Assembly (NCBI RefSeq): GCF_000760515.2
Contig: NW_013546400.1
Span: forward strand, 1-64,000
Source: Mitosporidium daphniae
Taxonomy: Eukaryota > Microsporidia
Length of the DNA: 64,000 bases
Reading direction: 5' to 3'
Made by a program: the position numbers and the translations under genes. Positions within the stretch are counted from its first letter, which is position 1; each line of letters begins with the position of its first letter. The notes under the pieces are model-generated. The model was not told where the DNA came from. It did not search any database and saw only the letters and a list, made by a program, of their open reading frames with translations. Positions 1 to 49,033 of this stretch are shown here, piece after piece.

Positions 1-2958
1 TTATCAATCACTGATGTAGCTGCGGTTTCTGCTGTGCAGAAACTTGTACGTAAGGAGCGGGGTCGTACACCTCTTATCGGTGCGTTTCTTGCCCGCGATA
101 CAGAATCAACTCTAAATAGTTCCAAGGACGCGATAAAGAATGAAGACACAGAGTCAGCCAAAGATCAGCAAGCGGGTCCAATTCCAGACACGCTACCGTT
201 CTATCCAGTCGGTACGTTATGCACTATCGTTAGTGCGTTGCCGACTGGTGGAGGAGCTCCACTGACTCTTGTCGTTTATCCGCACTACCGTATCAAGGCA
301 GATTTTGAGGCCCTGAATGATACTATTGCCAATAACGATACATCTGCTGATTCAGAATTGTCATCATCACCGTCTTCTCAGGTGTCTCAGTCACCCCGCA
401 CCCAGGCCTCTATGACGCTGCGGGTTCGGTTATTGGAACCACTACATATTGGTGCAACTGGATCCGAGAGAGCTCTGGCACAAGAGTGCATAACGCTGCT
501 TAGTTCTCTCGCTAAATCGAACGCTTTCATTCGTGAACACCTTGCTTCATTCACGCAGCCACTGCCGAGTGTTGATGAGCCAGAAGCCTTGACAGACCTT
601 ATTGCTGTACTTTGTTCCGGACCACCACAATCACTTCAGAGGATCCTGGCCTCAGAGTCTATGGAAGAACGGTTACGGATTGCTCTCGAGTTATTGTTGC
701 GCGAGTCTGAATCGACACAGTTGCTGATTGACATTCGGCGCAGTGTTGAAGAGCGGCTTTCTTCACGCCATCGTGAGGCGCTTTTACAAGAGCAGTTACG
801 TGCTATTCAGCGTGAACTTGGCAATGCGAACAGCAATTCCCGGCCAACAGGAGAATCCCTCCGCGAGCGTGCGATTTCTCTTTTTGAAAGCCGTATTGCA
901 CCTCTACGAGCTAAAATAATTGCAGAATCTCCGACAGTAACTCCACTTAGCACACCATCAGCCCCAGTGGAGCCCCTTTCACAACCAACATCACCTGTTA
1001 CATTTTCTTCCCTGTTAGCGCCTAGCATCCCTGCACTGCTGCAACTTATAGATGAGGAGATGGAGCGTCTTGCAAGCGTGGAAGTGAGTTCTGGCGAGTT
1101 TGGCATTATTCGTACGTATCTTGACTGGCTTACGGCGCTTCCATGGCTTTCCAGCCCTGCCAAAAATACGCCATCCCTTGAGGAGGCCCGTACAATTCTT
1201 GACACAGACCATTGGGGGCTGGCAGATGTTAAGCAGCGCATCATCGAGATGCTTGCATCTATCCGTTTGCAAGGCCAAAGCTCTGCTGTCGGAACCAACT
1301 CCTCACGCTCCGTATTGTTGCTAGTGGGTCCACCAGGCATCGGAAAAACTTCTATTGCGGCGAGCGTGGCTCGCGCCCTCGGAAGGCCCTTCTATCGTCT
1401 CTCATTAGGTGGCCTTGCGGATGTAGCTGAGATTAAGGGCCATCGACGCACATATCTCGGTGCCATGCCTGGAAAGCTTATCCAAGCATTGCTACAGACG
1501 CAATCACATGCTCCGGTCATTCTACTTGACGAGATCGATAAAGTTGGTATGGCAACAATGGGTGGACGCGTTGGCGGTGACCCAGGTGCTGCACTTCTTG
1601 AGGTTCTTGACGGCCGGCATTTCGTGGATTATTTCCTAGATACTCCCGTCGATCTTTCTGGAGTAATTTTTGTTGCCACTGCAAATCAGACAGATAGCAT
1701 TTCTGCCCCATTGTTGGACCGGATGAGCATTATCAGATTGTCTTCATATGTTACCGAGGAAAAGATTGCTATTGCCAAGCGGCATTTACTTCCTCAGGCG
1801 CTTTCCTCTACAGGGCTCGGCCATGTTCATGTTATTGGCTCGGAATCACCTATTTCTGTGGACGAAAATGCTACTTGTAGTGACCAAGTTGACAAAACCA
1901 TGCCCGGTGCCTCTGATCAGCTAAGCCCTGATAACAAGAAAAAATCCAGTGTTGAAGTTTGCTTGAGTCCCAAAACAAGCGAGTGCGTCATAGAATTTCC
2001 GGAGGCGACATTGCGGACGCTCATCGATAATTGGTGCCGGGAGCCAGGGGTGAGGCAATTACGACAATCCATCGAACGCATATGTCGGCGTATTGCGGCA
2101 ACCATTCTTGAACATCCGGGTGCGGCATTTGATGCTGCCCTCAGCTCCCTATACATCAAAGGGAGGTCTGTTATGACAAAAATGACAACGGAAAATACAG
2201 TGTCAATTTCCTCACCCATTCGTATTGGTGTCGAGGCATTGCCGCAGCTCCTTGGTCTGGCACCATTCTCTTCTGAGCTTAGTGATTTCGGCAGCAAGTC
2301 ATTGCCACCTGGTGTAGTGGCTGGACTTGCATGGACACCATATGGTGGGGCTATTATCCACATTGAAGTGATTCGTATCAATGAGACCGAGAATACCTCT
2401 GGATCTGAAAAAGAAAATGACCTGGTGCACTCCTCGTTGGCGCTACCATTGAAAACCACAGGACACCTTGGGAAAGTCATGGACGAATCGGCGGCGATTG
2501 CACATTCAGTAGTTCGCATGGCTCTAGCTGCAGATTCACAAACATCTCTTGAAGCTATACCTGCCAAGACAGGCTCGCATGGAACACTGCATCTACACGT
2601 GCCTGAAGGTGCGACTCCGAAAGATGGACCATCTGCCGGAGTTGCCATGGCCGTTGCTCTGCTCTCGCTGGCCCGAAATGTCCCCGTTCGCGCAGGGCTT
2701 GGTTTTACAGGTGAACTCACACTCTCTGGTCGTATCTTGCGGATTGGTGGTCTGCGAGAAAAAGCACTTGCTGCACGGCGGGAGGGGTTGACTGCGATAG
2801 CATTCCCACGAGCAAATATCCCCGAATGGGAGGAGATGGAATGTGCTAAGCCAGAGCCGCTCGTTGGTCCCAGTGTTGGCCTTGTTGGGTTTCCCGTCTC
2901 TTCCCTACAAGAGGTGCTCCCCATTGCCTTTCCGAAAACTTCCTCTCCCACCGCTTAG
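1..2958 (+). CDS. PIM1: ATP-dependent Lon protease, 5'-partial
   Basis: Lon-family AAA+ serine protease, probably the mitochondrial-matrix form that degrades damaged proteins. The frame is open to the left window edge and the first in-window residues already belong to the N-terminal Lon domain, so the start lies outside; 985 codons are visible. The N-terminal substrate domain is followed by Walker A GPPGIGKT (about codons 443-450), Walker B ILLDEIDK, and the C-terminal protease domain with catalytic Ser in PKDGPSAG (codon at 2632) and Lys in GGLREKA (codon at 2761). Serine- and threonine-rich insertions lengthen the region before the ATPase and the one after Walker B. The C-terminus ends PTA, not a PTS1 tripeptide, which argues against the peroxisomal paralogue. 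No intron is needed, unlike most genes here. Family certain; compartment inferred. Confidence 0.93.
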   Translation, partial: LSITDVAAVSAVQKLVRKERGRTPLIGAFLARDTESTLNSSKDAIKNEDTESAKDQQAGPIPDTLPFYPVGTLCTIVSALPTGGGAPLTLVVYPHYRIKADFEALNDTIANNDTSADSELSSSPSSQVSQSPRTQASMTLRVRLLEPLHIGATGSERALAQECITLLSSLAKSNAFIREHLASFTQPLPSVDEPEALTDLIAVLCSGPPQSLQRILASESMEERLRIALELLLRESESTQLLIDIRRSVEERLSSRHREALLQEQLRAIQRELGNANSNSRPTGESLRERAISLFESRIAPLRAKIIAESPTVTPLSTPSAPVEPLSQPTSPVTFSSLLAPSIPALLQLIDEEMERLASVEVSSGEFGIIRTYLDWLTALPWLSSPAKNTPSLEEARTILDTDHWGLADVKQRIIEMLASIRLQGQSSAVGTNSSRSVLLLVGPPGIGKTSIAASVARALGRPFYRLSLGGLADVAEIKGHRRTYLGAMPGKLIQALLQTQSHAPVILLDEIDKVGMATMGGRVGGDPGAALLEVLDGRHFVDYFLDTPVDLSGVIFVATANQTDSISAPLLDRMSIIRLSSYVTEEKIAIAKRHLLPQALSSTGLGHVHVIGSESPISVDENATCSDQVDKTMPGASDQLSPDNKKKSSVEVCLSPKTSECVIEFPEATLRTLIDNWCREPGVRQLRQSIERICRRIAATILEHPGAAFDAALSSLYIKGRSVMTKMTTENTVSISSPIRIGVEALPQLLGLAPFSSELSDFGSKSLPPGVVAGLAWTPYGGAIIHIEVIRINETENTSGSEKENDLVHSSLALPLKTTGHLGKVMDESAAIAHSVVRMALAADSQTSLEAIPAKTGSHGTLHLHVPEGATPKDGPSAGVAMAVALLSLARNVPVRAGLGFTGELTLSGRILRIGGLREKALAARREGLTAIAFPRANIPEWEEMECAKPEPLVGPSVGLVGFPVSSLQEVLPIAFPKTSSPTA

Positions 2959-6486: not shown

Positions 6487-9260
6487 ATGACACTGAAGCC
6501 TCAGCATAATAACCGTACATTTTGGCACCGATTTACTTTTAGAGGACGAGGACAATATAATTCAGGCTGTTGTTCTCATAGATCTCTCTACGGATAGGTC
6601 CTTTGAGCCTTTGACATTTGGCACCCAGCGAGTGAGCTTTATTTTTTAATCCCGACAGAGTCTATTACCGGTTGCCAACATCCCGCTGGTATCATACACG
6701 CTTGAATGGCTTGCCTCGTCCGGATGCATTTCCAGCATCATCTTGGCTGGGACCGTTGATTCAATATCTCCTCTTCTGGCAGCCATCAAGTAAGTTTGTT
6801 TTGGCAACTTTAGCGAGCTCGTCCAGCACAATTCGATTTATCCGCCGATTTCTCCATTTTACACAAGCACCTCATGTTCATCGCTTGGAGACCAGTTGAG
6901 AGACATCGATGCAGCTGGAATTGTTACGGGCGATTTTTTGCTTTTGCGCAGCGGCGCCTTGGATTATCTTTCAAATTCACCTCTTCTTCCGATGTTGGAG
7001 CTGCACCGCAGCCGGAGAAAATCGGCAAGCTCCATCATGACCACGCTATTGAGGCGGCTTCCTCCGTCGCATCATGCAAGAAATGCAAGAGATGCCTCCA
7101 TTTATGTTATCGATGGCGAAAGACTGGTTTCAATGCACTCGATAGATCCCAAAATGGGTATTTTTAATTTCTTAAAGCCGGTTAGGGATCCCACTCTCTC
7201 TCAATGAACTGATTCCAAAGAAAACCTCTTCACTTGAAGTGCGGTTTGATCTTGTGGACTGCTGTTTGGATATTGTAGGCTCTTATTTTTCTTGCTCATC
7301 TAGTGCTCGCCAGAGGTGCTGGCCCTGTTCACAGAAAATTTCGACTACCAAGATATAAAGGTCGACTTTTTCCAGGGAATCTCAGCCAGTGATATTCTTT
7401 CCTATGAATTCTCAGTTTCTATCCTTGGCGAGCAAGCTAGCCCTAAAGGTAATGCTGGCTCTGGTAGCATCAATGGATCCTATTTTTCCGTGGTCAATTC
7501 GACCTTTGCTTTTATGGCTGCAAGCAGAGATATTCTGCAAAGATGGTGCTATCCGTTGGTTCCAGATATTCCAATGTCTTCTCTGCTGCATAAGGTTATA
7601 TCACCAGCCATGGGTACTTCCACATCTCCCACCATAAAAGGCGCAAAAGGCTCTTCAACCAAGACAATCTGTCATGGCCAGGGCGTAAAATTAAGACGCT
7701 ATGGCACTTGCATTGCGTATGTTGGGGAGAAAGTCACCATGGGAACCGGGGTGCGTTTTGAAGGCCATGTACTGATTGGGTCGAATTCGGTAATCGGCTC
7801 CGGGGTCGTTCTAATTGACTGTGTAATTGGTGCTAGAACGATCCTCGACGCAAACGCTTCTGTAAAAAATTCGATCCTTTTCTCATCAGATGATGCAAGT
7901 TGCCGTATAGGCACGAATGCCTCAATCCAGGGCTCTTTGCTTGCGCCTGGAACCGTCGTTGCAGATGGTGTTCGGACAAGAATAGGAACCATTCTGGGTA
8001 CCTGGACAGGTCTATGCCCAATATATTTGGAGACTGATCTTGATCCAACTTGCTTGAGATGGGTATCCTCTAAGCTCCTTTCCATTGGATCAAAGACGGA
8101 AACAGACAGAAATACTCATCGGCCGAACCAGCCTTCAGTCTTTATGTTTATATCTTCAGATGAGGAGGAGGCTCACCATTTTACGCCACCTACTTCTTTA
8201 GTGCCCTGGAGTGTAGCTTTAGGCAATCGTCTTCGATTTGCGTTTAAAAAGAAAAAATTTGCAAGCCCTTTCCCTGCTCGACCTGAATCGGAGAATGAAG
8301 ACAGTCATGAACGCGGGGAATCAGATAGTGATGATGACAATGAAGACGCTGATATGAAAGAAAATATTAATGACCTTAGGGATGTAGAAATAGAATTATC
8401 CAAGTCCGCTTTTTTCAAAACCAACGACAATTGGCTCACTCTGAACGAGCCCATGTTTTTTTCCACTAAAAAGACACCGTGGGTCGAGGACGTCCATGCA
8501 AGTCCTGATCCGACACAATCACCAGATTCATTAACATCTCTGAAGAACAAACAGAGCATATCGCTTTCTGGCCTTTCTGGCCTTTCTGGACTCGAGACTG
8601 CATCTGCTTCAATGAGCCAAACATCAAAAATGCCACCCGTGGTGCATACTCCCTCTGCTTCAAGTCATCCACAATTTGCGACAGAAATCGTAGAGACTCT
8701 AAAGCATGCTTTGGACTATGTTGCAGAAGTGGATAGCAGCCCATCATCGCCAATGGGCTCTTCGCCAACATCGGCAGATCTTCAGGCCTTTGTGGAGAAC
8801 ACTTGTGTCGAAATTAACGCCCTGAAATTTGCATTCAATGCAAATTTTCTTGAGGTAAGAAAAGCAGTGATCCCAGTGCTTGTTCGCCATAGTTTGAGTG
8901 GCGAGAGATCCTCCAAAATCCAACAAGTAAGCCGTACAAAGTAACTGCTAGGTGTTGGAGTGTTGGTTACCGTTGTTTTCCAAAATCTGCCACGGGTCAA
9001 GTGCCCAGAGTGAAATACTAACCCTACTTTTGGACACATGTGTTGGATGCAAGACAGGGATCGCCGATTTTCGTTGGATCGTATCGCATATGTATCAGCT
9101 AGATATCTTGGAAGAGGATGATATCCTCAAATGGTGGGAAAATGCCACTTCGGCAGAGCTCTCCGCTGACCTCAGGACACATGAGTATTCGTCAATCCTA
9201 TTTTCGCTATCCTCCTTCATAGAATGGCTTGAAGAAGAAGATGACAGCGATCATTCCTAA
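6487..9260 (+). CDS. GCD6: translation initiation factor eIF2B epsilon
   Basis: Catalytic epsilon subunit of eIF2B, which exchanges GDP for GTP on eIF2. Seven exons: 6487..6514, 6543..6631, 6659..6789, 6814..7157, 7186..7274, 7304..8926, 8952..9260. Introns are 28, 27, 24, 28, 29 and 25 nt and every junction keeps frame, giving 870 residues. Order: nucleotidyltransferase-like domain (IIQAVVL, LLPVANIPLVSYTLEWL, SLGDQLRDIDAAGIVTGDF), left-handed beta-helix repeats (IGSNSVIGSGVVLIDCVIG), a long acidic/Ser-rich linker, then the catalytic W2/eIF5C domain ending in the acidic FIEWLEEEDD. It is longer than the yeast protein (about 710) because of the linker. The ATG follows a CCCCAAATTTTAAG box. 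Confidence is very high because splicing restores family motifs at each junction. Confidence 0.95.
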
Positions 9261-9974
9261 CCCTAAAATACATGTGTCAATCAGATGTTTTTAATAGGCC
9301 GGGAATTTGTTAAGTAGTCTCCCTAATATATTAAGATAGGCGGTTTGAATCTGTGCTAGTTTCTTTAAATTTTGTCGAATTATAACGATTCCCATGATGG
9401 GTGGCAGCACGATATTGTCTGCTGCCTGCACATAAGGGGTTTTTAAGCGCCTTGCATCCAGAAATTTTACAGGCAACGAAGAGCACGAGCCGGGATATCA
9501 CTTACCCTGCCCTGTCCTCAAACCTCAATCGCTCTTTGTAAATACATTCCCGCAACGAAAGTAGGAGATCTTTGATTATATGAGTTAACCCAACTGAGCT
9601 CCTAAATTACAGGCACCCGATTAATTGAAATTTAATTTCGCTTAATTTAATGTCAGGTTCGGACTATATGGGAGCAGAGGCTCCTCTTTTCAAGCAGCAA
9701 AGCGAGACGATAATCGCTGCAGCTGGATAAAGAGGCTAGGAGGCTAATTTTATGAACCCCCATTTTGACTAAAATTTTGAGTTTCAAACTAAATCCCTTG
9801 CTTTCTGGTACATAATGAATTTGATCCCAAATAAGGGCGATCTGATGAGTAAATTTTCGGGGTTTCATTGGCCACTTTAGCAATTATTGAATTTAATATT
9901 CCGATTGGATGTAAAATTTCCGGTGCAAAACGGTCTAAAATTTTAAAAGCTTTTTCGAAAAGCTGTCCACATTG
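9261..9974. other. intergenic region before coiled-coil gene
   Basis: No supportable gene. TAACCCTAAA overlaps the GCD6 stop codon. An AAAATTTTAAAAG box lies about 35 bases before the next ATG and probably belongs to its promoter. Confidence 0.5.
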
Positions 9975-11826
9975 ATGCACGTTCGAAAGCGTCTACTATT
10001 TCTGACAGCGTTGATCGCAATTCTCGTTTTGCCCTCTCTGCAATTTCAAGACGAAGTGCAAATAGACCATTATCAACAAGATGATTCAACAGGCGCGCAG
10101 AGCAGGGATACTGATTCAAAGGGCAACGAAGAAAGAGTTGACAGCATATTAAAGCGGGTTCAAAGTAGTTTTAGGAGGGCTCGTAAAGCCTTTCAAGTAA
10201 AAAAAAGGGCCTCTAAGAAAGTGTCTATGGAAGCAGCTGAGCCACTAGATACACCAGGATCAGCTTCGCAAAAACTATCAGATTTAAAAAGTCGAACAGG
10301 TCAAGAATATCCACCACTTCAACCAAATTTACAAAAAAAAGAAGCTCTACAGGCTCAAACAAGAGATGAAGAAAGTAAAACAATTGAAGAAATTCTGGTG
10401 TATCAACAAAATATATTGGTTTTAGAGCAGCTATTACTTAAACAAGATAAAAAAAAGTGCTCACTCGATTAGTTTATAGACCTATGCCAATGCAAAAGGC
10501 TCTACAAGATCGAGAAAATATAAACAACCTACTAGCCGAAAAAAATCTAAAAGATCTGCCGTCTTCATGTAGCCCTCTAAAGAAGCTGCTAGATCGACTA
10601 TTTCAGATATCTCAGATATCTGAAATATCTCTAAAAAATCCAAAAGAGTTAGAAAAACTAAACGATCTGATGTCTCAAAAAAAGAAGCTAGCTCAAGAAG
10701 CTCGGGACGAATTAAGAGGACTACAAAGTAAGCTATCTCAAAAAGCTCAACAACAGTTTGAAGAAGCTAGAAAAGCTTTAAAAGATCAAAAAAGCGATCT
10801 TCTAGATCCACAAGACGCTCTACTAGCTCAAAAAAATCTACAGACTCGAGAACATATATTAGATCTACAATATCTACTAGTTCAACACGCTCAAAATGAT
10901 CTAGAAGATCTAAAAGATGAAAATCGTATGTTAATTCAAAATTCTCGACGCTCTCAAAAAGATCTGAACGCCCTAAAAATGCTAATAGAAAAAGAAGATC
11001 TAAAAAACCACCTATCTTCATGCAATGCTCTAAAAGATCTTCTAGATGAACTACATAAGCTAAATCCAATATATAAACTAAAGCAGCCATATGAAATACT
11101 TAAAAAGCCAGAAATTCTAGAAACACTAAAATCTGTAGTAGCTGTAAAAAATGAGTTAGCTAAAAAAGCTCGAAATGAATTAATGGAACTACAAGATCGA
11201 CTATCTCAAGAAGCCCAAAAAAAAGATGAGGAAGGTGGTTCTCTATCAACTGTAGAAGGTTCATCACCTCCGCAAAGTGATTCTCAAGAACCTAAATCAG
11301 ATATACAACATTCATCAGTTAAAATGGATCTAGAAAATCAAAAAGGTTCATTCAGCAATCTAAACAGTCTGATAGATTACCTATTTCAAATATCTCAAAC
11401 AGAATTACCACCACGAAAAAATGAAATATTTCAAGAAGCTCAAGAAGATATTCAAAATTGCGTGTTAAAAGATAAAAAAAAGAGCTAAAAAACCGTATAC
11501 AAGATCTAAAAACCAAACTGCAAGATCTAGAAACCAAACTGCCAGATCTAGAAAACAAACTGCCAGATCTACAAAAAGAACTGGAAAATAATAAAAAAGA
11601 ATTAAAAGATCTGATCGATCTGCAAGAACTGCAAGAACTACAAGAACTGAAAGAACTGCAAGAACTGAAAGAAACTGTGAAAGAAATGCAAGAAACTGTG
11701 AAAGAAATGCAAAAAAAATTTGATATTTTAATTGAATCTTTCCAAAAAGGTAAAGAAGCTCGGGAAAGAAACAAAGGCCCTATTAACTCAACAGGATATG
11801 TACTCTGCAGAAGAATAAGAAGTTAA
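9975..11826 (+). CDS. secreted repetitive coiled-coil protein read in three frames
   Basis: Not recognised. The ATG at 9975 opens a typical signal peptide (MHVRKRLLFLTALIAILVL, then a small-residue cleavage zone), followed by Lys/Glu/Gln/Leu-rich coiled coil. Frame 1 runs to 10472, a second frame continues from 10457 to 11488, and a third from 11482 to 11826. Composition and repeat units continue across both breaks. Each break falls on an identical GATAAAAAAAAG. A joined product would be about 617 residues. Repeat modules of about 150 residues start near 10544 and 10997 (each with an LSSC motif), with a partial copy near 11357. The last 110 codons carry LQELQELKEL-type heptads. Possibilities: frameshifted gene, two 23-nt introns, or a decayed or misassembled gene. 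A secreted structural or polar-tube/wall-like role is speculation. Confidence 0.6.
10446..10457 (+). promoter_or_regulatory. first slippery A8 tract (candidate -1 frameshift)
   Basis: GAT AAA AAA AAG in the zero frame contains the heptamer A_AAA_AAG. A -1 slip makes GTG at 10457 the next codon, opening a 342-codon frame. The -1 frame has a stop (TAA at 10448) just upstream, so the switch must happen between 10451 and the frame-1 stop at 10470. An alternative is a 23-nt GT-AG intron at 10457..10479, which restores the same frame. Confidence 0.45.
10544..11470 (+). repeat. tandem coiled-coil modules
   Basis: Two diverged copies of a roughly 450-bp module begin near 10544 and 10997. Shared order: NLKD/DLKN, LSSC, LKKLLD/LKDLLD, a helical stretch, then a K-L-A-x-(E/K)-A-R segment and a LSQ(K/E)AQ segment. 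A third partial copy begins near 11357 (LNSLIDYLFQISQ). Confidence 0.7.
11471..11482 (+). promoter_or_regulatory. second slippery A8 tract (candidate -1 frameshift)
   Basis: Identical GAT AAA AAA AAG in the reading frame of the second segment. A -1 slip gives GAG at 11482 and a further 114 codons. The alternative stop (TAA at 11473) again confines the switch to this tract. A 23-nt intron at 11462..11484 would also restore frame, but it would need an unusual GAG acceptor. Confidence 0.45.
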
Positions 11827-34279: not shown

Positions 34280-36016
34280 TTAAATGGGCAGTTCATAAAT
34301 ACGCACAATATGCTTGTTAATGTGCTCCTTGTGAAGTACATATGACCCGGCAGGAAGTACACGGAGTCTATCAACAATGGCTTTTAAAACGGCAAGCCCG
34401 CCAGCCAGGGTAACATTTGCCGTGTGTGTGGCAAAATCTTCTGGATTCCATTGCGAAATACCGACAATATCATAGCGGTTCTTGTCCTTGCCAGGCGTGC
34501 GAGTAATAAATCCAACCTTGATATAGTCGGTGTCGGCAAGCAGCGCTTGAAGAGCCCACTTGGCCAGCTTGGAGCCGTTATTTTTCATCTCATGCCCAAG
34601 AACGGCCCCCTTTTGTGAGTCCAGACGAGAAAACAAGCCGCCCGATGATGAGCCGCTTCCAGACCCGGATGTGTTTCCAGACAAAGGATAGTATTCGTTC
34701 AAAGCAAAGAGCGAGACGGTCGCCTCAGAATCTTGGATCTTCACCACACCATCGACCGTTGATCTGCAAACGAGGAACAGATTATCTCCGAGTGGAAATC
34801 GGCGATACCTAACCGCACCAAGATCGGTTGAATTGTCGGACATGTCCTCGTCCATCGCTCCTGGGGATGCGATCGGGTGTGCCTCCTTCTTCAGAACCTG
34901 ATCTCTAAAGGACTCATTAATCAGAAACGCCTCTTCAAATCTGACCCTCCGCTCCTCAGGATGAAGAGTGGCATCCGAGCTTGTTTCGTTGACCGAATAA
35001 AGACTACTGGCCAGAACGGCTGGATTTCGGGCGTCGAAAATGATCCGACCACGGCTATCCACTCGTGCAACAAGATCCCAAGGATAAAAAGAGCGAGGTG
35101 AAATCATGAGCAGTGCAAGAATGGCATCGGTTGCAAAAACATGCCCGGTGTCCGAGTCAGACATCTAATGTAAATGTACACATGCTGCTTACATGAAGGA
35201 GGACGGGGTCAAGAGATGTCGTGCTCAGTGAATGAATTTTTGGAATTTTCGGGGGATCATCAAAAAGATTTGAACGGCGCTGAGCGGGAATTTGTAATGA
35301 CTTTGATGTCTTGCTCGATAGTTTGTTATATGATTTGTCAAAGGAACGCACATTTCCATCTTCCTGCAGAGTTTCTCCGAGGCCCTTTAGCGAGTCGCCC
35401 CCCAGTAAGGTGGTGGTGGCTGCGGCCGTTGCTGTGTACACGCTGGAGGGCAGAAGCTTTACAAGCGGGGAAAGGTCGATTTCGCAAATGAGGCTCCAGT
35501 TTGTGGACGGGTTAAGCGTCACCATTGACATGGCTGAGTGATGCCCATCAAATCCGCCACTCGCCCCATATCCGGCCGAAGACAAATGCTTATTGAGCTC
35601 TTTCCAATTTGAAGATGACGACCCGGTGGGTACGGGCGACGTTATTCCTGCCTTCCCGCCCGCCTTGTATCCGGAAGAGTTCATACGAGACGCGGAGCTT
35701 CCGTGCGTCTTGCGAGACGTTATAACGGTAAAACCTGACGGAGATTTTAAAGAAGAAGCTGCTAAAAATCAATAAAACACAAGGGCATACACTCAGCGCT
35801 ACTTGTCAAAATAGGGGTGGCCGGCTTTTTGGGGAAAACAACCTTCAATGCCGGTTGTACAGGCAATTGGCTGTGATGCGAATGATGAAAATGATGCGTA
35901 TATTCAGAAAGCCAATCTGCAATTTTTAATGTGGCATTTTCAATCGCTGCATTTGTGAGCACCGACATAGGTGGGAGAGTGGGAGAGGACCCTTTCATCT
36001 CATGCATGTTGCTCAT
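34280..36016 (-). CDS. EIF3D: translation initiation factor eIF3 subunit D
   Basis: eIF3d binds mRNA caps and the 40S platform within the eIF3 complex. Three exons (35791..36016, 35193..35761, 34280..35164), introns 29 and 28 nt; 559 residues. The core starts where exon 2 is spliced to exon 3: SLDPVLLH joins MSDSDTGHVFATDAILALL, then PRSFYPWDLV, YRRFPLGDNLFLVCR, LDSQKGAVLGHEMKNNGSKLAKW, GFITRTPGKDKNRYDIVG and a final IVRIYELPI. The N-terminal part diverges from the family consensus and is His/Ser/Ala-rich. The acidic C-terminal tail of animal eIF3d is absent. Confidence 0.93.
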
Positions 36017-36271: not shown

Positions 36272-39200
36272 TTAGGGGTTGGCAGCTAGGGCGGCAATTT
36301 TTTCGTAATAGCGACTCATGAATTCAAAAAAGGCAAACTGCGTTGGCTGGATGCCGTACGTATACACAAAGCGCGATGCAAGGTATGATCCGAAGATTGC
36401 CCGCAAGTATTCCATTGGAATCCGCTCCATGAGTTTGTCTAGACCGACAAGATCTAGTAGCAGTTTCGGCATTGCCTCTGAAAGCACATGACGACGTAGG
36501 GCGGAGTTTTCCCACAATGACGTATGTCTCAATTCCTCATTGAGCTTCACAATGGCAAACGAAATTTCGTCAGACAGCATCGAGCGCGAGATTCCCGTTC
36601 GCTTATTTTCTCTCCAAATCGCCTCGAACTCAAGTTGCGCATTCTTCTCAATGACAGCATGCACCGCTGCCACATACGCCTGGTAAAAGGAAGGCAGGGA
36701 TCCGTCTTTACCCATCTGCATGTGCTCCGAAAATTCAGCATCCGTCATCGAAAGCGCCGCCAGGACTTCCAGAGACGATGAAGTTACGCCGCCCTTGTTC
36801 GCCGAAGCGTCTTTGAAAATGATGACTCCTGCACGCTCAAGAGCAAGACGCGCCTCTTGGGTAAAAAAGAGATTTGCACCCTCGACCACATATTTCCACT
36901 TGGGAGAACGACCATCCTCACCAGCTCCGGTCAAGATGGACGTAACATTGGAGGCATCCACGGACTCTGGGCGTCCTCCACACGGCACGAAAAGGTCGCA
37001 AGCTGCGTATTCGCTCAAGTGGAATTCGTTTCTGAAACGCAAGCCGTCCTCCACAATGTGACCGTCTGGTAAGCGCACGTCTTTATCTTCGATGAGGATC
37101 CGGGCTCCGCGAGGACCCAGTTTTTTATCATCAAAGCAAGTAACCATTTGCCGTCCATTTGCCAATCGCAGTAGCTCGCTGCGATTGAGACCATCCGGGT
37201 CGAAGATCACTCCAGAGCCGTCCACCACGGCCAGCGTACGATCGTTAGAGATTTTGATTTCATTTGACCCAAGGTCGCCATCTGGCCCACCTGTTTGTAT
37301 TTTTTGAATCGATTCTTCGCGCAATCCGAGCTTACGATATATGCCCAAAACATATTGGTGCACCGAGCGTGTCGTCATTCCATACAGATCGTGAGGAATG
37401 CCGCCGAGACTCTGAGACTTACCGGTGGTAAATGCTTTCCAAAAGGATGCGCCCCGCTTTTGAGCGTGCTGAGAGGCCCAGTCCATGTACTCGGCACTGC
37501 CCTCGTCAGGGCCCAAGAAGAGGATTTCCTCTGCACCAAGGTGATCTACGATGCGTTCGTTTGTGGGGCCGCATTTGCCCGGATTGATGACCAAGTCGAG
37601 CAGTGAATCGACATACTTTTGGAAAGCTACCACTGATTTTTCCTGCTGATCGACATTGAGCAAAATGGTGCCCTTGGAACCACCTTCTGGGATGTCTTTG
37701 TTTTTGCGCTGCTGCGTTGCTGCCAGCCAATAATTCTCGTCAAAGAGCGAGCGGAAATTGATGCTATACGCCTCGCTGTTTCTGCTTCTGATGATTCGAA
37801 TGCCTCCCCGAGCGATGTCTCTGAAACGGAGATGGAAGCCTTTGAATTCGGAGCCAATCACTAGGAAAAGACCGAAAGGGCGGATCGGATACTCACCCTG
37901 GGGCACAAATGCCGGATCCAGACGAAATGAGAGCGCCACTTTTGTTTGCAGATAAAAGTTTGTCTTGAGCACGTGGCGATTAAATGTGAGCAAGCTCTCA
38001 AAAACCTACACATAAAATGGAATAAACAAAGTCGTAGCAAAATCGTAACGACGATCGCCAAAATCAAACAATCGCGTTAAAAATAAGAATGAGAGAGAGA
38101 TAAAGAGAAAGAGGTACATAACAGCAGATGAGGGGAAATACATACGCCCCAAACAAAAAGACCTCCATCAAGGAACGATGGAAACAACACATCAAAAGTG
38201 GATGAACAAATTTAAATTGTAAGCGGCACAATACATACCATATACTCGTGGTTATTAACGACTGTTCTGCGAATCAACTCAATGATTTCATCCTCGTTGA
38301 GCACATGGTTCATATGCAGGCGCTGGAACGAAAGTGAAGGCTGTAATGAATTTTCTGAGCAAGAGCCAATATAATGCGCCATTGCAAAATTTACATACAG
38401 TGCGCGGATGAGCACAGGATAGCGCTTGATGATATCAAGCACATACTCTCTGGTAAAAGTGTCCTGGCGCAATCGCTTTTTTAGCCTGGCAAGGACATCC
38501 AGGTGCACTGGATTGTTCTGGTCAACAATGGATGCCAGACTGACAAACTCAGACCCAAGTCTGTTGAGAAAGTGTCCCGCAAACACAAAACCCACATAGC
38601 CGTAAATGGCCTCCTGCACAGAAAGCTTTGCCTCTTGAAACAGACTTTGCAGCGGCGTAGTGGGGAGGCAATATATGAGCGAAGTTTCTTTCATTATCTG
38701 CAGAATAGACAGCTCAATCGGCGGTGGCGGTGGATGAGATCCGTCCAGGTGATGGTTCGAGCCAGAGTCCATCAGCGGATTGAGATAGAGCGTAATGATG
38801 GTGACTCCATTTGCAAATTGCTCGACATACTTGCGAGAAGAGAACAGTCCATAATAGTGGTAAAGATCTGAAAGTGCCGAAAAGAGGTTAAGCGTAGTTT
38901 GCTGGCGGTAGCCGATAACCAAGCGCTTTTGGCGGATGCCTTCAATTTCAAACATCTCAATGACAGGCCCAGTGCGCGTGAGCACGTTGAGCATAACTTT
39001 TTGGTAAAGGTCGAGGGTTTTTTCGGTCGCTCTCGACAGAAATGTGATGTCAGAGACCTTTTTGATGTCGGTTTCCGTTTCAGAAACATCGGGGTCAACC
39101 CATTGGCACCTCGAAACAAAGTAGCATCGTAATTGTGTAGTGGAGGAGTAGGAAACGGTGCCTAAAGAGCGATAGGACTCCAATCGATACGAGCATCTGC

Positions 39201-46630: not shown

Positions 46631-48769
46631 CTAGGAAGAGGCAAAGCGGCGTTCGCCGCTAATCGAAGACCGTGCAAACTTCTTACGCTCATTGGCATCG
46701 AGGAACTGCTTACGTAACCTTATGCTTTTAGGTGTAACCTCGATCATTTCGTCATCTAGGTGCAAAAATTTAAAGTCAACAATACCTGCAACATACGCAA
46801 TAAAGTCTTCAAGCGAGAAAGCTCTCGGCGGGGCCAGACGAATGGCCTCATCTTTGCTGATGGCGCGGTAGTTTGAGGTGGTCTTTGTCTTTGCAGGATT
46901 GACATCAATATCGTGGGACCGGCTGCATTCGCCAATCACCATTCCAGGATATACGGGCTTTCCTGGGCCTACAAAAAGCGTGCCCCGGCCTTCGAGCTCT
47001 CCAAGAGCAAAGGAAGTGGTGATGCCCTCAGCCATGGAAATCAGGGCACCCTTCCTGGCGCACTCAATGCGCCCCTTAAACGGCTCATAACCGGAAAAGG
47101 TGTGGTTTATAACACCTGTTCCGTGAGTATCATTCTTGAATTCCGAATGGTAGCCAAGAAGGCCCCGCGTAGGGATCTTGAAGATCAGGCGGGACTTTCC
47201 AAGTGCTTCTGAAACCCGGAGCAACTCGCCTTTACGTCGAGTGAGCTTATCGATGATGACACCTGTGTACTGTTCATCCAAGTCGATAGTAATTTCCTCA
47301 ACGGGCTCTAGCTTGACCTCCCCCCCATCTGAATGTTGTTCAGTCTTGAGGAGAACCTTTGGCGGTGAAATAGAAAATTCAAGCCCTTCTCGCCGCATTG
47401 TTTCTATAAGGATGGCAAGATGAAGCTCCCCTCGCCCATAAACCTCGACAAAGTCCGTGTTGGCGGAAGAAGAGCCCGTAGAGACCACATTAAGTGCCAC
47501 ATTTGTTTCGGCCTCTTTGCGAAGACGCTCTGCCAACTGCTGGCAAGTCGCTGCCCGTCCTTCTCTTCCGGCTAGTGGTGAAGAATTTGACGAGAATAGA
47601 ATTGAAAGCGTTGGTGGATCGATTGGATCCCACGGAAGAGCTTCTGTGACCTCTGGTGCACAAATGGTACTGTTGACGGTAGCAGTGCAGACACCGGAAA
47701 TGGAAATGATGTCCCCGGCTGCCGCCTCTTCAATAGGCACCTGAGAAAGCCCCCGACGGATAAAGAGGCGAACTACGCGGGCTTCCTCTGTGGAGTTTGG
47801 CTTGGAGGCCTCTGGCGTGATCACTTTGATACGGTCATTAAGACGAACCGTGCCATGCTCCACTTTGCCAAGGAAACATTTTCCCACATATGCTCCAGAT
47901 TCGATGTTGTTCACCAACATCGAGAACGGCCGAGATCGGTCTCCCAAAGGAGGGGGCACATGTTCGATGATCTTTTTGAAGAGGATCTCCATTGATGACG
48001 GCCCATGCTTCCCAAAAAGCCTCTCCTTCAAATATGCAGATCGTGCTGAAAAGTCCATTGCCGGGGTATTCTTGATGGCTTCTAATAGAATGGAGGATGG
48101 ATTGATCTCGGTTGCCCATCCCTCCTTTGCAGAGGCAAACAAAATCGGATATGCCATTTGCTTTTCGTTTGCGCCCAACATGCAAAAGAGATCCAGAATA
48201 TCCGAGTCAACCTGGTCCGTGCGAGATGTTTCTCGATCGACCTTATTGACCACCACGATTGGCGCCAGACCGCGACGCAGTGCTTTGGAAAGCACAAACT
48301 TTGTTTGAGCCATTGGACCTTCGGTAGCATCAACCACCAGAGCCACACCATCTACCATCCCAAGAACGCGCTCCACCTCACCGCCAAAATCGGCATGCCC
48401 CGGCGTGTCGACAATATTGATGCGGTAGCCCTGATACTGCACACTGGTACTCTTTGAAAGGATTGTTATTCGACGCTCTTTTTCCAACACATTTGAATCC
48501 ATGCTGAGAATTCCATCTCCGTCTTCGCTGGCAGTGCCATTGGAAGAAGCGAGGGAGTAAAGAGCCCCGCTCTGCTTAAGAAGGCAGTCCACCAAGGTGG
48601 TTTTTCCATGATCCACGTGTGCGATTATGGCTAGATTTCTGATTTTGCTTTGATCTACAATGAACGATGACGATTCACAAGAGGATGTTGAAAAAAACCG
48701 CCCCACACGAACATGCTGCAATGGAGGTGCATGCGGAGCAATTCTAAACACCCGCCTAGCTTTAAACAT
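46631..48769 (-). CDS. TypA/BipA translational GTPase with organelle leader
   Basis: Bacterial-type ribosome-associated GTPase, 712 residues from the ATG at 48769. The N-terminal 35 residues ([17 protein letters not shown], then VGRFFSTSS) are Arg-rich and acid-free like a mitochondrial presequence. G1 AHVDHGKTT, switch [19 protein letters not shown]4 VNKVDR. It has the TypA-specific [11 protein letters not shown], later [11 protein letters not shown] and [14 protein letters not shown] at the C-terminus, which separate it from LepA/Guf1 and EF-G. Single exon. Probably acts on mitochondrial ribosomes, inferred from the leader and from nuclear genes for mitochondrial ribosomal proteins nearby. 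Confidence 0.93.
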
Positions 48770-49033
48770 GCAGCGACAATAAAATTTCAACCAAATTAAA
48801 CGGCATTATTGCAACATTTAAATTTTATCCCTTCAATGCGCTGACAGACACATGTTTCAACGCATTGACATGCATGTTTCTTGCCTGCTAGTCTGGCCAA
48901 TTACTTTGATCAACTGACTGCATCAGTGGATTGCATCAACATGCTTTCCGAAAAAGGGAGCAGTAGATCGCCAAATTAAACTGCTTCAATGTTCATTCTG
49001 TCACCATGCATTTTTACCAGTGAGCCGGTATTC

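What the first reader, a model, noticed from the sequence alone, without database searches (positions are those of the whole stretch)
9975..11826. Three reading frames of one secreted coiled-coil gene join at two identical GAT-A8-G tracts
Frames 1, 2 and 3 of a signal-peptide-bearing repeat protein meet exactly at 10446-10457 and 11471-11482. Both tracts read GAT AAA AAA AAG in the active frame, the classical A_AAA_AAG -1 slippery heptamer. In both, a stop lies immediately upstream in the new frame, so the switch is confined to the tract. Two equal, in-phase sites in one gene suggest programmed -1 frameshifting or polymerase slippage that would yield three nested products (about 161, 500 and 617 residues). 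23-nt introns also restore frame at each site, and homopolymer undercalling could mimic both.
Basis: partly seen in the sequence, partly recalled or inferred. Interest (0 to 1): 0.8.

Follow-up and report, generated by a model that had tools for sequence, protein, structure and literature searches.

The report
Secreted-protein gene with two frame breaks
A gene for a secreted, probably rod-like protein in an uncultured fungus-like microbe changes reading frame twice, each time at a run of eight A's; it is most likely an ordinary mutated copy in a gene family, with a smaller chance that the slipping is used on purpose.

Summary
One gene (9975-11826) runs through three frames; a codon model trained on two paralogues switches frame at about 10455 and 11475, at the two GAT-A8-G tracts. 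Three family members look broken near their start. Introns are unlikely: short introns here score 9.5-16.2 bits, the two 23-nt candidates 2.2 and -3.7. Programmed -1 frameshifting is weakly supported: all six A8 runs are slippery heptamers but only two shift (these read A_AAA_AAG, the others A_AAA_AAA), and only site 1 has a well-placed hairpin. Undercalling is possible but not favoured: A9 and A10 runs are called 129 and 36 times, and no longer version was found among proteins. Best reading: real one-base contractions at the two runs in a decaying paralogue. A sister copy (contig C9) may show the same -1 join at an A8 run.

The parts
9904..9931 (+). family promoter element (ATTGGATGTAAAATTTCCGGTGCAAAAC)
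   Evidence: 13 matches in the genome with up to 3 mismatches, 0 for the reversed control; 5' region aligned with that of C62
9975..10043 (+). leader, looks like a signal peptide (MHVRKRLLFLTALIAILVLPSLQ)
   Evidence: 16 of the aligned residues shared with the C62 leader; similar leaders at the other copies read
9975..10472 (+). frame-1 reading, 165 residues to stop TAG
   Evidence: codon model
10446..10457 (+). site 1, GAT AAA AAA AAG; frame 1 gives way to frame 2
10464..10514 (+). hairpin 6 nt after the site-1 heptamer
   Evidence: -14.2 kcal/mol; z -2.65 to -3.66 depending on the window; 9th lowest energy of 299 windows in the gene; but 2 of 90 other windows in the gene reach z about -3.4
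10451..11488 (+). frame-2 reading, heptad-like repeats
   Evidence: found only as itself in the protein collection
11471..11482 (+). site 2, GAT AAA AAA AAG; frame 2 gives way to frame 3
11476..11826 (+). frame-3 reading, tandem heptad-like repeats, stop TAA
11840..12077 (+). 3' flank homologous to the 3' flank of paralogue C28 (limits approximate)
   Evidence: alignment

Best explanation
The gene is one copy of a lineage-specific family of secreted, often coiled-coil proteins in an uncultured fungus-like eukaryote. Its two frame breaks are real one-base contractions of A-runs that encode lysines, made by replication slippage in an A-rich gene. The sequenced allele most likely makes only the 165-residue leader-plus-stub protein and is a recently disabled paralogue in a birth-and-death family. 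Shown: the frames, the break positions, the family, other members that look broken. Inferred: that the contractions are in the organism's DNA, that they are mutations and not used signals, and that the copy is off.
For: Frame switches fall at the two tracts. Six of the gene's 17 A-runs of 6 or more are 8 long, and the two that break are the ones that start at a codon boundary, as expected if each was one base longer before and so among the most slip-prone sites. Three other members, C97, C115 and C43, close after 15, 22 and 43 codons. A sister copy, C9a, seems to have a -1 join at an A8 run and has tandem repeat units that differ by one A. Elsewhere most assignable long runs keep frame: 21 of 28 runs of exactly 8, and 5 of 5 of 9 or more.
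Against: No relative with an unbroken frame was found, so the unbroken ancestor is inferred from codon signal alone. There is no stop codon inside any of the three frame segments, so any decay is recent. All -1 cases seen are contractions, none an expansion, which recoding or undercalling would also give. The broken state of C97, C115 and C43 could be hidden introns; they were not broken at A-runs.
Confidence: 0.45

Rival explanations
1. Assembly or base-calling undercall: both tracts are one A longer in the organism and the gene is one intact frame of 617 codons.
For: Homopolymers are the usual place for such errors. Runs of 9 are somewhat fewer (129) than the trend of shorter runs predicts from 536 runs of 8. 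One other T8 run (C27) carries a +1 join in an unidentified long frame.
Against: Runs of 9 and 10 are called 129 and 36 times genome-wide, and 5 of 5 assignable runs of 9 or more keep frame. The frame-2 protein cluster counts 2 sequences on 3 contigs, yet no protein from about 340 to 1080 residues that matched the pieces was found. The contig ends within 640 nt downstream of 5 of 13 family promoters (binomial P about 4e-6), which suggests a short-read assembly, less prone to this error (inference).
Confidence: 0.2
2. Recoding: -1 ribosomal frameshifting or RNA-polymerase slippage at both A8 tracts makes 165-, 504- and 617-residue products from one gene.
For: A_AAA_AAG in phase at both sites and at neither of the other four A8 runs. 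Site-1 hairpin with a 6-nt spacer. A second family member seems to need a -1 step at an A8 run. Genes with two -1 shifts are known in some retroviruses (PMC5009743, passage).
Against: Site 2 and the C9a tract have no downstream structure of note. The four other runs are also slippery heptamers (A_AAA_AAA) and keep frame. Paralogue C28 reads through with an A8 run in frame. The slippage passage seen speaks of runs of 9 in bacteria (PMC5009743). That A_AAA_AAG is weaker in eukaryotes than in bacteria is recalled.
Confidence: 0.18
3. Reversible switching (phase variation): the A-runs change length in the population, turning the long forms on and off.
For: A-runs in a coding region of a secreted, variable family. 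Homopolymer switching is well described in bacteria (listings only: PMC2831843, PMC11868660).
Against: No length variant was seen; population reads are not available here. One search for a eukaryotic counterpart found no paper.
Confidence: 0.12
4. Two 23-nt introns at the tracts.
For: They restore frame, and this genome has very short introns (24-33 nt in 18 chosen examples; one, 28 nt, splits the eIF3d gene).
Against: Donor plus acceptor scores are 2.2 and -3.7 bits against 9.5-16.2 for the 18 introns (hand-picked and scored in-sample). Longer options reach 8.1 (80 nt) and 8.7 (185 and 164 nt); the 12 best of 102 listed for site 2 include no GTA donor.
Confidence: 0.03

Closest known systems
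-1 programmed ribosomal frameshifting at A_AAA_AAG (dnaX type; genes with two -1 shifts in some retroviruses; recalled and PMC5009743 passages)
   Same: in-phase A_AAA_AAG at both sites, old-frame stop within 5 codons, new-frame stop just upstream; hairpin at site 1
   Different: no structure at site 2; four other slippery A8 runs keep frame; no conserved shift in relatives could be shown
Homopolymer phase-variable (contingency) genes of bacteria (paper listings)
   Same: mononucleotide runs inside the coding region of a secreted protein of a variable family
   Different: eukaryote; no length variation demonstrated
Frameshifted paralogues or pseudogenes in lineage-specific secreted-protein families (general knowledge, recalled)
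   Same: common 5' region and leader, divergent repetitive bodies, other copies that look dead
   Different: the copy has no stop codons besides the two frame breaks; each copy carries its own promoter element

Membership tests
-1 programmed ribosomal frameshift | slippery heptamer in phase | tested here: met
   A_AAA_AAG at 10451 and 11476; but four unshifted A8 runs carry A_AAA_AAA
-1 programmed ribosomal frameshift | stimulatory structure a few nt downstream, site 1 | tested here: inconclusive
   hairpin after 6 nt, 9th of 299 windows by energy; similar z elsewhere in the gene in 2 of 90 windows
-1 programmed ribosomal frameshift | stimulatory structure a few nt downstream, site 2 | tested here: not met
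   stem starts about 19 nt downstream, -4.2 kcal/mol, 187th of 299; pseudoknots were not modelled
-1 programmed ribosomal frameshift | shift site conserved in relatives | tested here: inconclusive
   C9a has a possible -1 join at another A8 run; C28 has none; no relatives outside this genome
-1 programmed ribosomal frameshift | trans-frame product | not testable with these tools
   needs ribosome profiling or peptides
Phase-variable gene | homopolymer run in the coding region that sets the frame | tested here: met
   two A8 runs at the frame breaks
Phase-variable gene | run length varies within the population | not testable with these tools
   no reads available
Spliceosomal intron | splice sites like those of this genome | tested here: not met
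   2.2 and -3.7 bits against 9.5-16.2
Disabled paralogue (pseudogene) | frame-breaking change relative to the coding ancestor | tested here: met
   codon signal changes frame twice
Disabled paralogue (pseudogene) | loss of expression or of selection | not testable with these tools
   no RNA data and no orthologue for a substitution test
Leader/promoter family seen here | shared promoter element followed by a similar leader peptide | tested here: met

The most novel reading that the evidence does not exclude
A family of secreted coiled-coil proteins in an uncultured fungus-like eukaryote uses slippage at A-runs (ribosomal, transcriptional, or reversible in the DNA) to release nested protein lengths from one gene, with two slip sites in this copy and at least one in a sister copy.
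Probability: 0.25. Interest if true: 0.75.

Novelty: new member of a known kind. Interest (0 to 1): 0.38.

Why it matters
If the breaks are plain mutations, the gene is a snapshot of fast birth and death in a secreted-protein family of a poorly known lineage. If slippage is used, it would be a rare eukaryotic gene with two -1 steps, or a eukaryotic counterpart of bacterial homopolymer switching. Read mapping alone would separate several of these readings.

Tried and rejected
Introns: scored and rejected. Separate genes: leader, promoter and codon signal fit one gene, and the promoter element occurs once on this contig among the matches found. Known domain: none for frames 1 and 2 in Pfam; frame 3 was not scanned. 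Homologues elsewhere: for frame 2 only itself among 7992 scored candidates and none in viral contigs (19 pattern matches, none confirmed); none for the three pieces together among 7994 candidates. Frame 3 against frame 2, and frames 1-3 against C9a and C28, as proteins: 5 of 7 in-frame comparisons did not exceed the best of 100 shuffles; C28 against frame 1 (79, shuffle maximum 68) and frame 2 (102, maximum 94) did, so the codon model, not protein similarity, carries the frame argument. Conserved C-terminus after frame 3: the 3' homology has non-triplet gaps, so I take it as flank. C27 T8 run with a +1 join: no Pfam family on either side, left open. Papers: searches listed nothing on this family in the rows shown, 77 found no paper; I saw listings, plus passages by term in PMC5009743 and PMC8476143 and a term search with no hits in PMC5701793. 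No paper was read in full.

Full report
What is there. The window lies on contig C81 (101,558 bases) of an unnamed assembly of 4,662,434 bases in 147 contigs. Its phosphofructokinase has its best named relatives in Syncephalis and Rozella (44 and 43% identity) and an unnamed 82% relative; animal proteins follow at about 40% (best 120 of 7990 listed). Lon, two-domain PFK, GDH2 and a TypA/BipA-like gene and She9/Mdm33, eIF3d and Integrator subunit 3 fit a fungus-like (holomycotan) eukaryote. That placement is an inference.

The observation. Frames 1, 2 and 3 meet as described. To test that frames 2 and 3 are coding and not just open, I trained codon preferences on two paralogues from other contigs (C9a and C28; 512 codons). 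In 30-codon windows frame 1 wins in 8 of 8 (9975-10395), frame 2 in 17 of 17 (10455-11415) and frame 3 in 5 of 5 (11475-11715). Hydrophobic residues follow a 3.5-residue period in frame 2 (3 of 500 shuffles reach it) and frame 3 (0 of 500), weakly in the mature part of frame 1 (33 of 500), so 'coiled-coil' is fair; no structure was predicted.

Family. The leader of frame 1 matches contig C62 (E 0.005; E 5e-5 in reverse), and the 5' regions align beyond the leader. A promoter pattern made from copies known by then hits 13 places with up to 3 mismatches (8 exact), 0 in the reversed control. I read 10 of the 13 (C9 twice, C23, C28, C51, C62, C81, C97, C115, C134), four of which had served to make the pattern; all 10 encode a similar leader. 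C36, C69 and C96 were not read, and the last two have 3 mismatches. C43, found by protein search, is an eleventh. Bodies differ: coiled-coil-like in C81, C9a and C28, tandem repeats in C23 and C134, hydrophobic segments in C51. C97, C115 and C43 close after 15, 22 and 43 codons, unless an unseen intron saves them. The 3' flanks of C81 and C28 are also homologous.

What the tracts are. The gene holds six A8 runs. All six form an in-phase A_AAA_AAN heptamer: A_AAA_AAG at the two breaks, A_AAA_AAA at the four others. The two that break are those that start at a codon boundary. In 248 kb I examined 61 A/T runs of 8 or more. With a rule asking for 60 open codons on both sides, 53 runs of exactly 8 gave 21 in frame, 3 at -1, 4 at +1 and 25 unassigned; 8 runs of 9 or more gave 5 in frame and 3 unassigned. 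Two of the +1 cases (C2) lie inside a 265-codon in-frame ORF, so the rule errs there; the other two (C7, C27) are unexplained. The three -1 cases are the two of the finding and one in C9a. C9a lies on a stretch fetched for another A8 run before the family was known, so it is an independent encounter. Its support is weaker: the -1 frame scores as coding only over roughly 60-90 nt of an A-rich tail, and TAATAA follows in the old frame, so it may simply be the end of that gene.

Mechanism. Replication slippage at long A-runs of an A-rich gene explains position, context and the broken sister copies, and needs no special signal. Programmed -1 frameshifting gains from the heptamer type and the site-1 hairpin, and loses from site 2, from the four unshifted A_AAA_AAA runs and from the structureless C9a tract. 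Introns fail on splice-site quality; that comparison uses introns I chose by eye, one with Pfam support on both sides (eIF3d, 28 nt) and one on the upstream side (an eIF2B-epsilon-like gene, 25 nt). Undercalling remains possible: runs of 9 are common in the assembly but somewhat below the trend of shorter runs.

Databases. The frame-2 protein is found only as itself (P0001, 334 aa, 2 sequences, 3 contigs, longest 101,558 bases as this contig); whether the other contigs are independent data cannot be seen. A search with the three pieces separated by X, which admits proteins of roughly 340-1080 residues, scored 7994 candidates and found none at E 0.001. An allele unbroken at either tract should have appeared if a deposited assembly held it and its gene had been called.

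Verdict.

Noticed in passing
window 8927-8951 (+) and 35165-35192 (-); more: Very short spliceosomal introns (25 and 28 nt) in conserved genes, next to a long one of roughly 230 nt in GDH2 near 38010-38238.
   Followed up: partly
L034/L053 (C9:14300-16250): Two tandem family members; the first ends near an A8 run with a K/E-rich tail continuing in the -1 frame, and its tail repeats differ by one A (A8 against A7).
   Followed up: partly
L057 (C51:6640-8800): A family member with the same promoter and leader but a body with several hydrophobic, membrane-like segments.
   Followed up: no
L044 (C27), T8 run at locus position 882-889, minus strand: A long frame without Pfam match carries a +1 join at a T8 run.
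   Followed up: partly
C36, C62, C134, C23, C9 near contig ends: In 5 of 13 family promoter hits the contig ends within 640 nt downstream, as if the repetitive bodies break the assembly.
   Followed up: partly
window 46631-48790 (-): A TypA/BipA-like GTPase gene in a eukaryotic contig.
   Followed up: no
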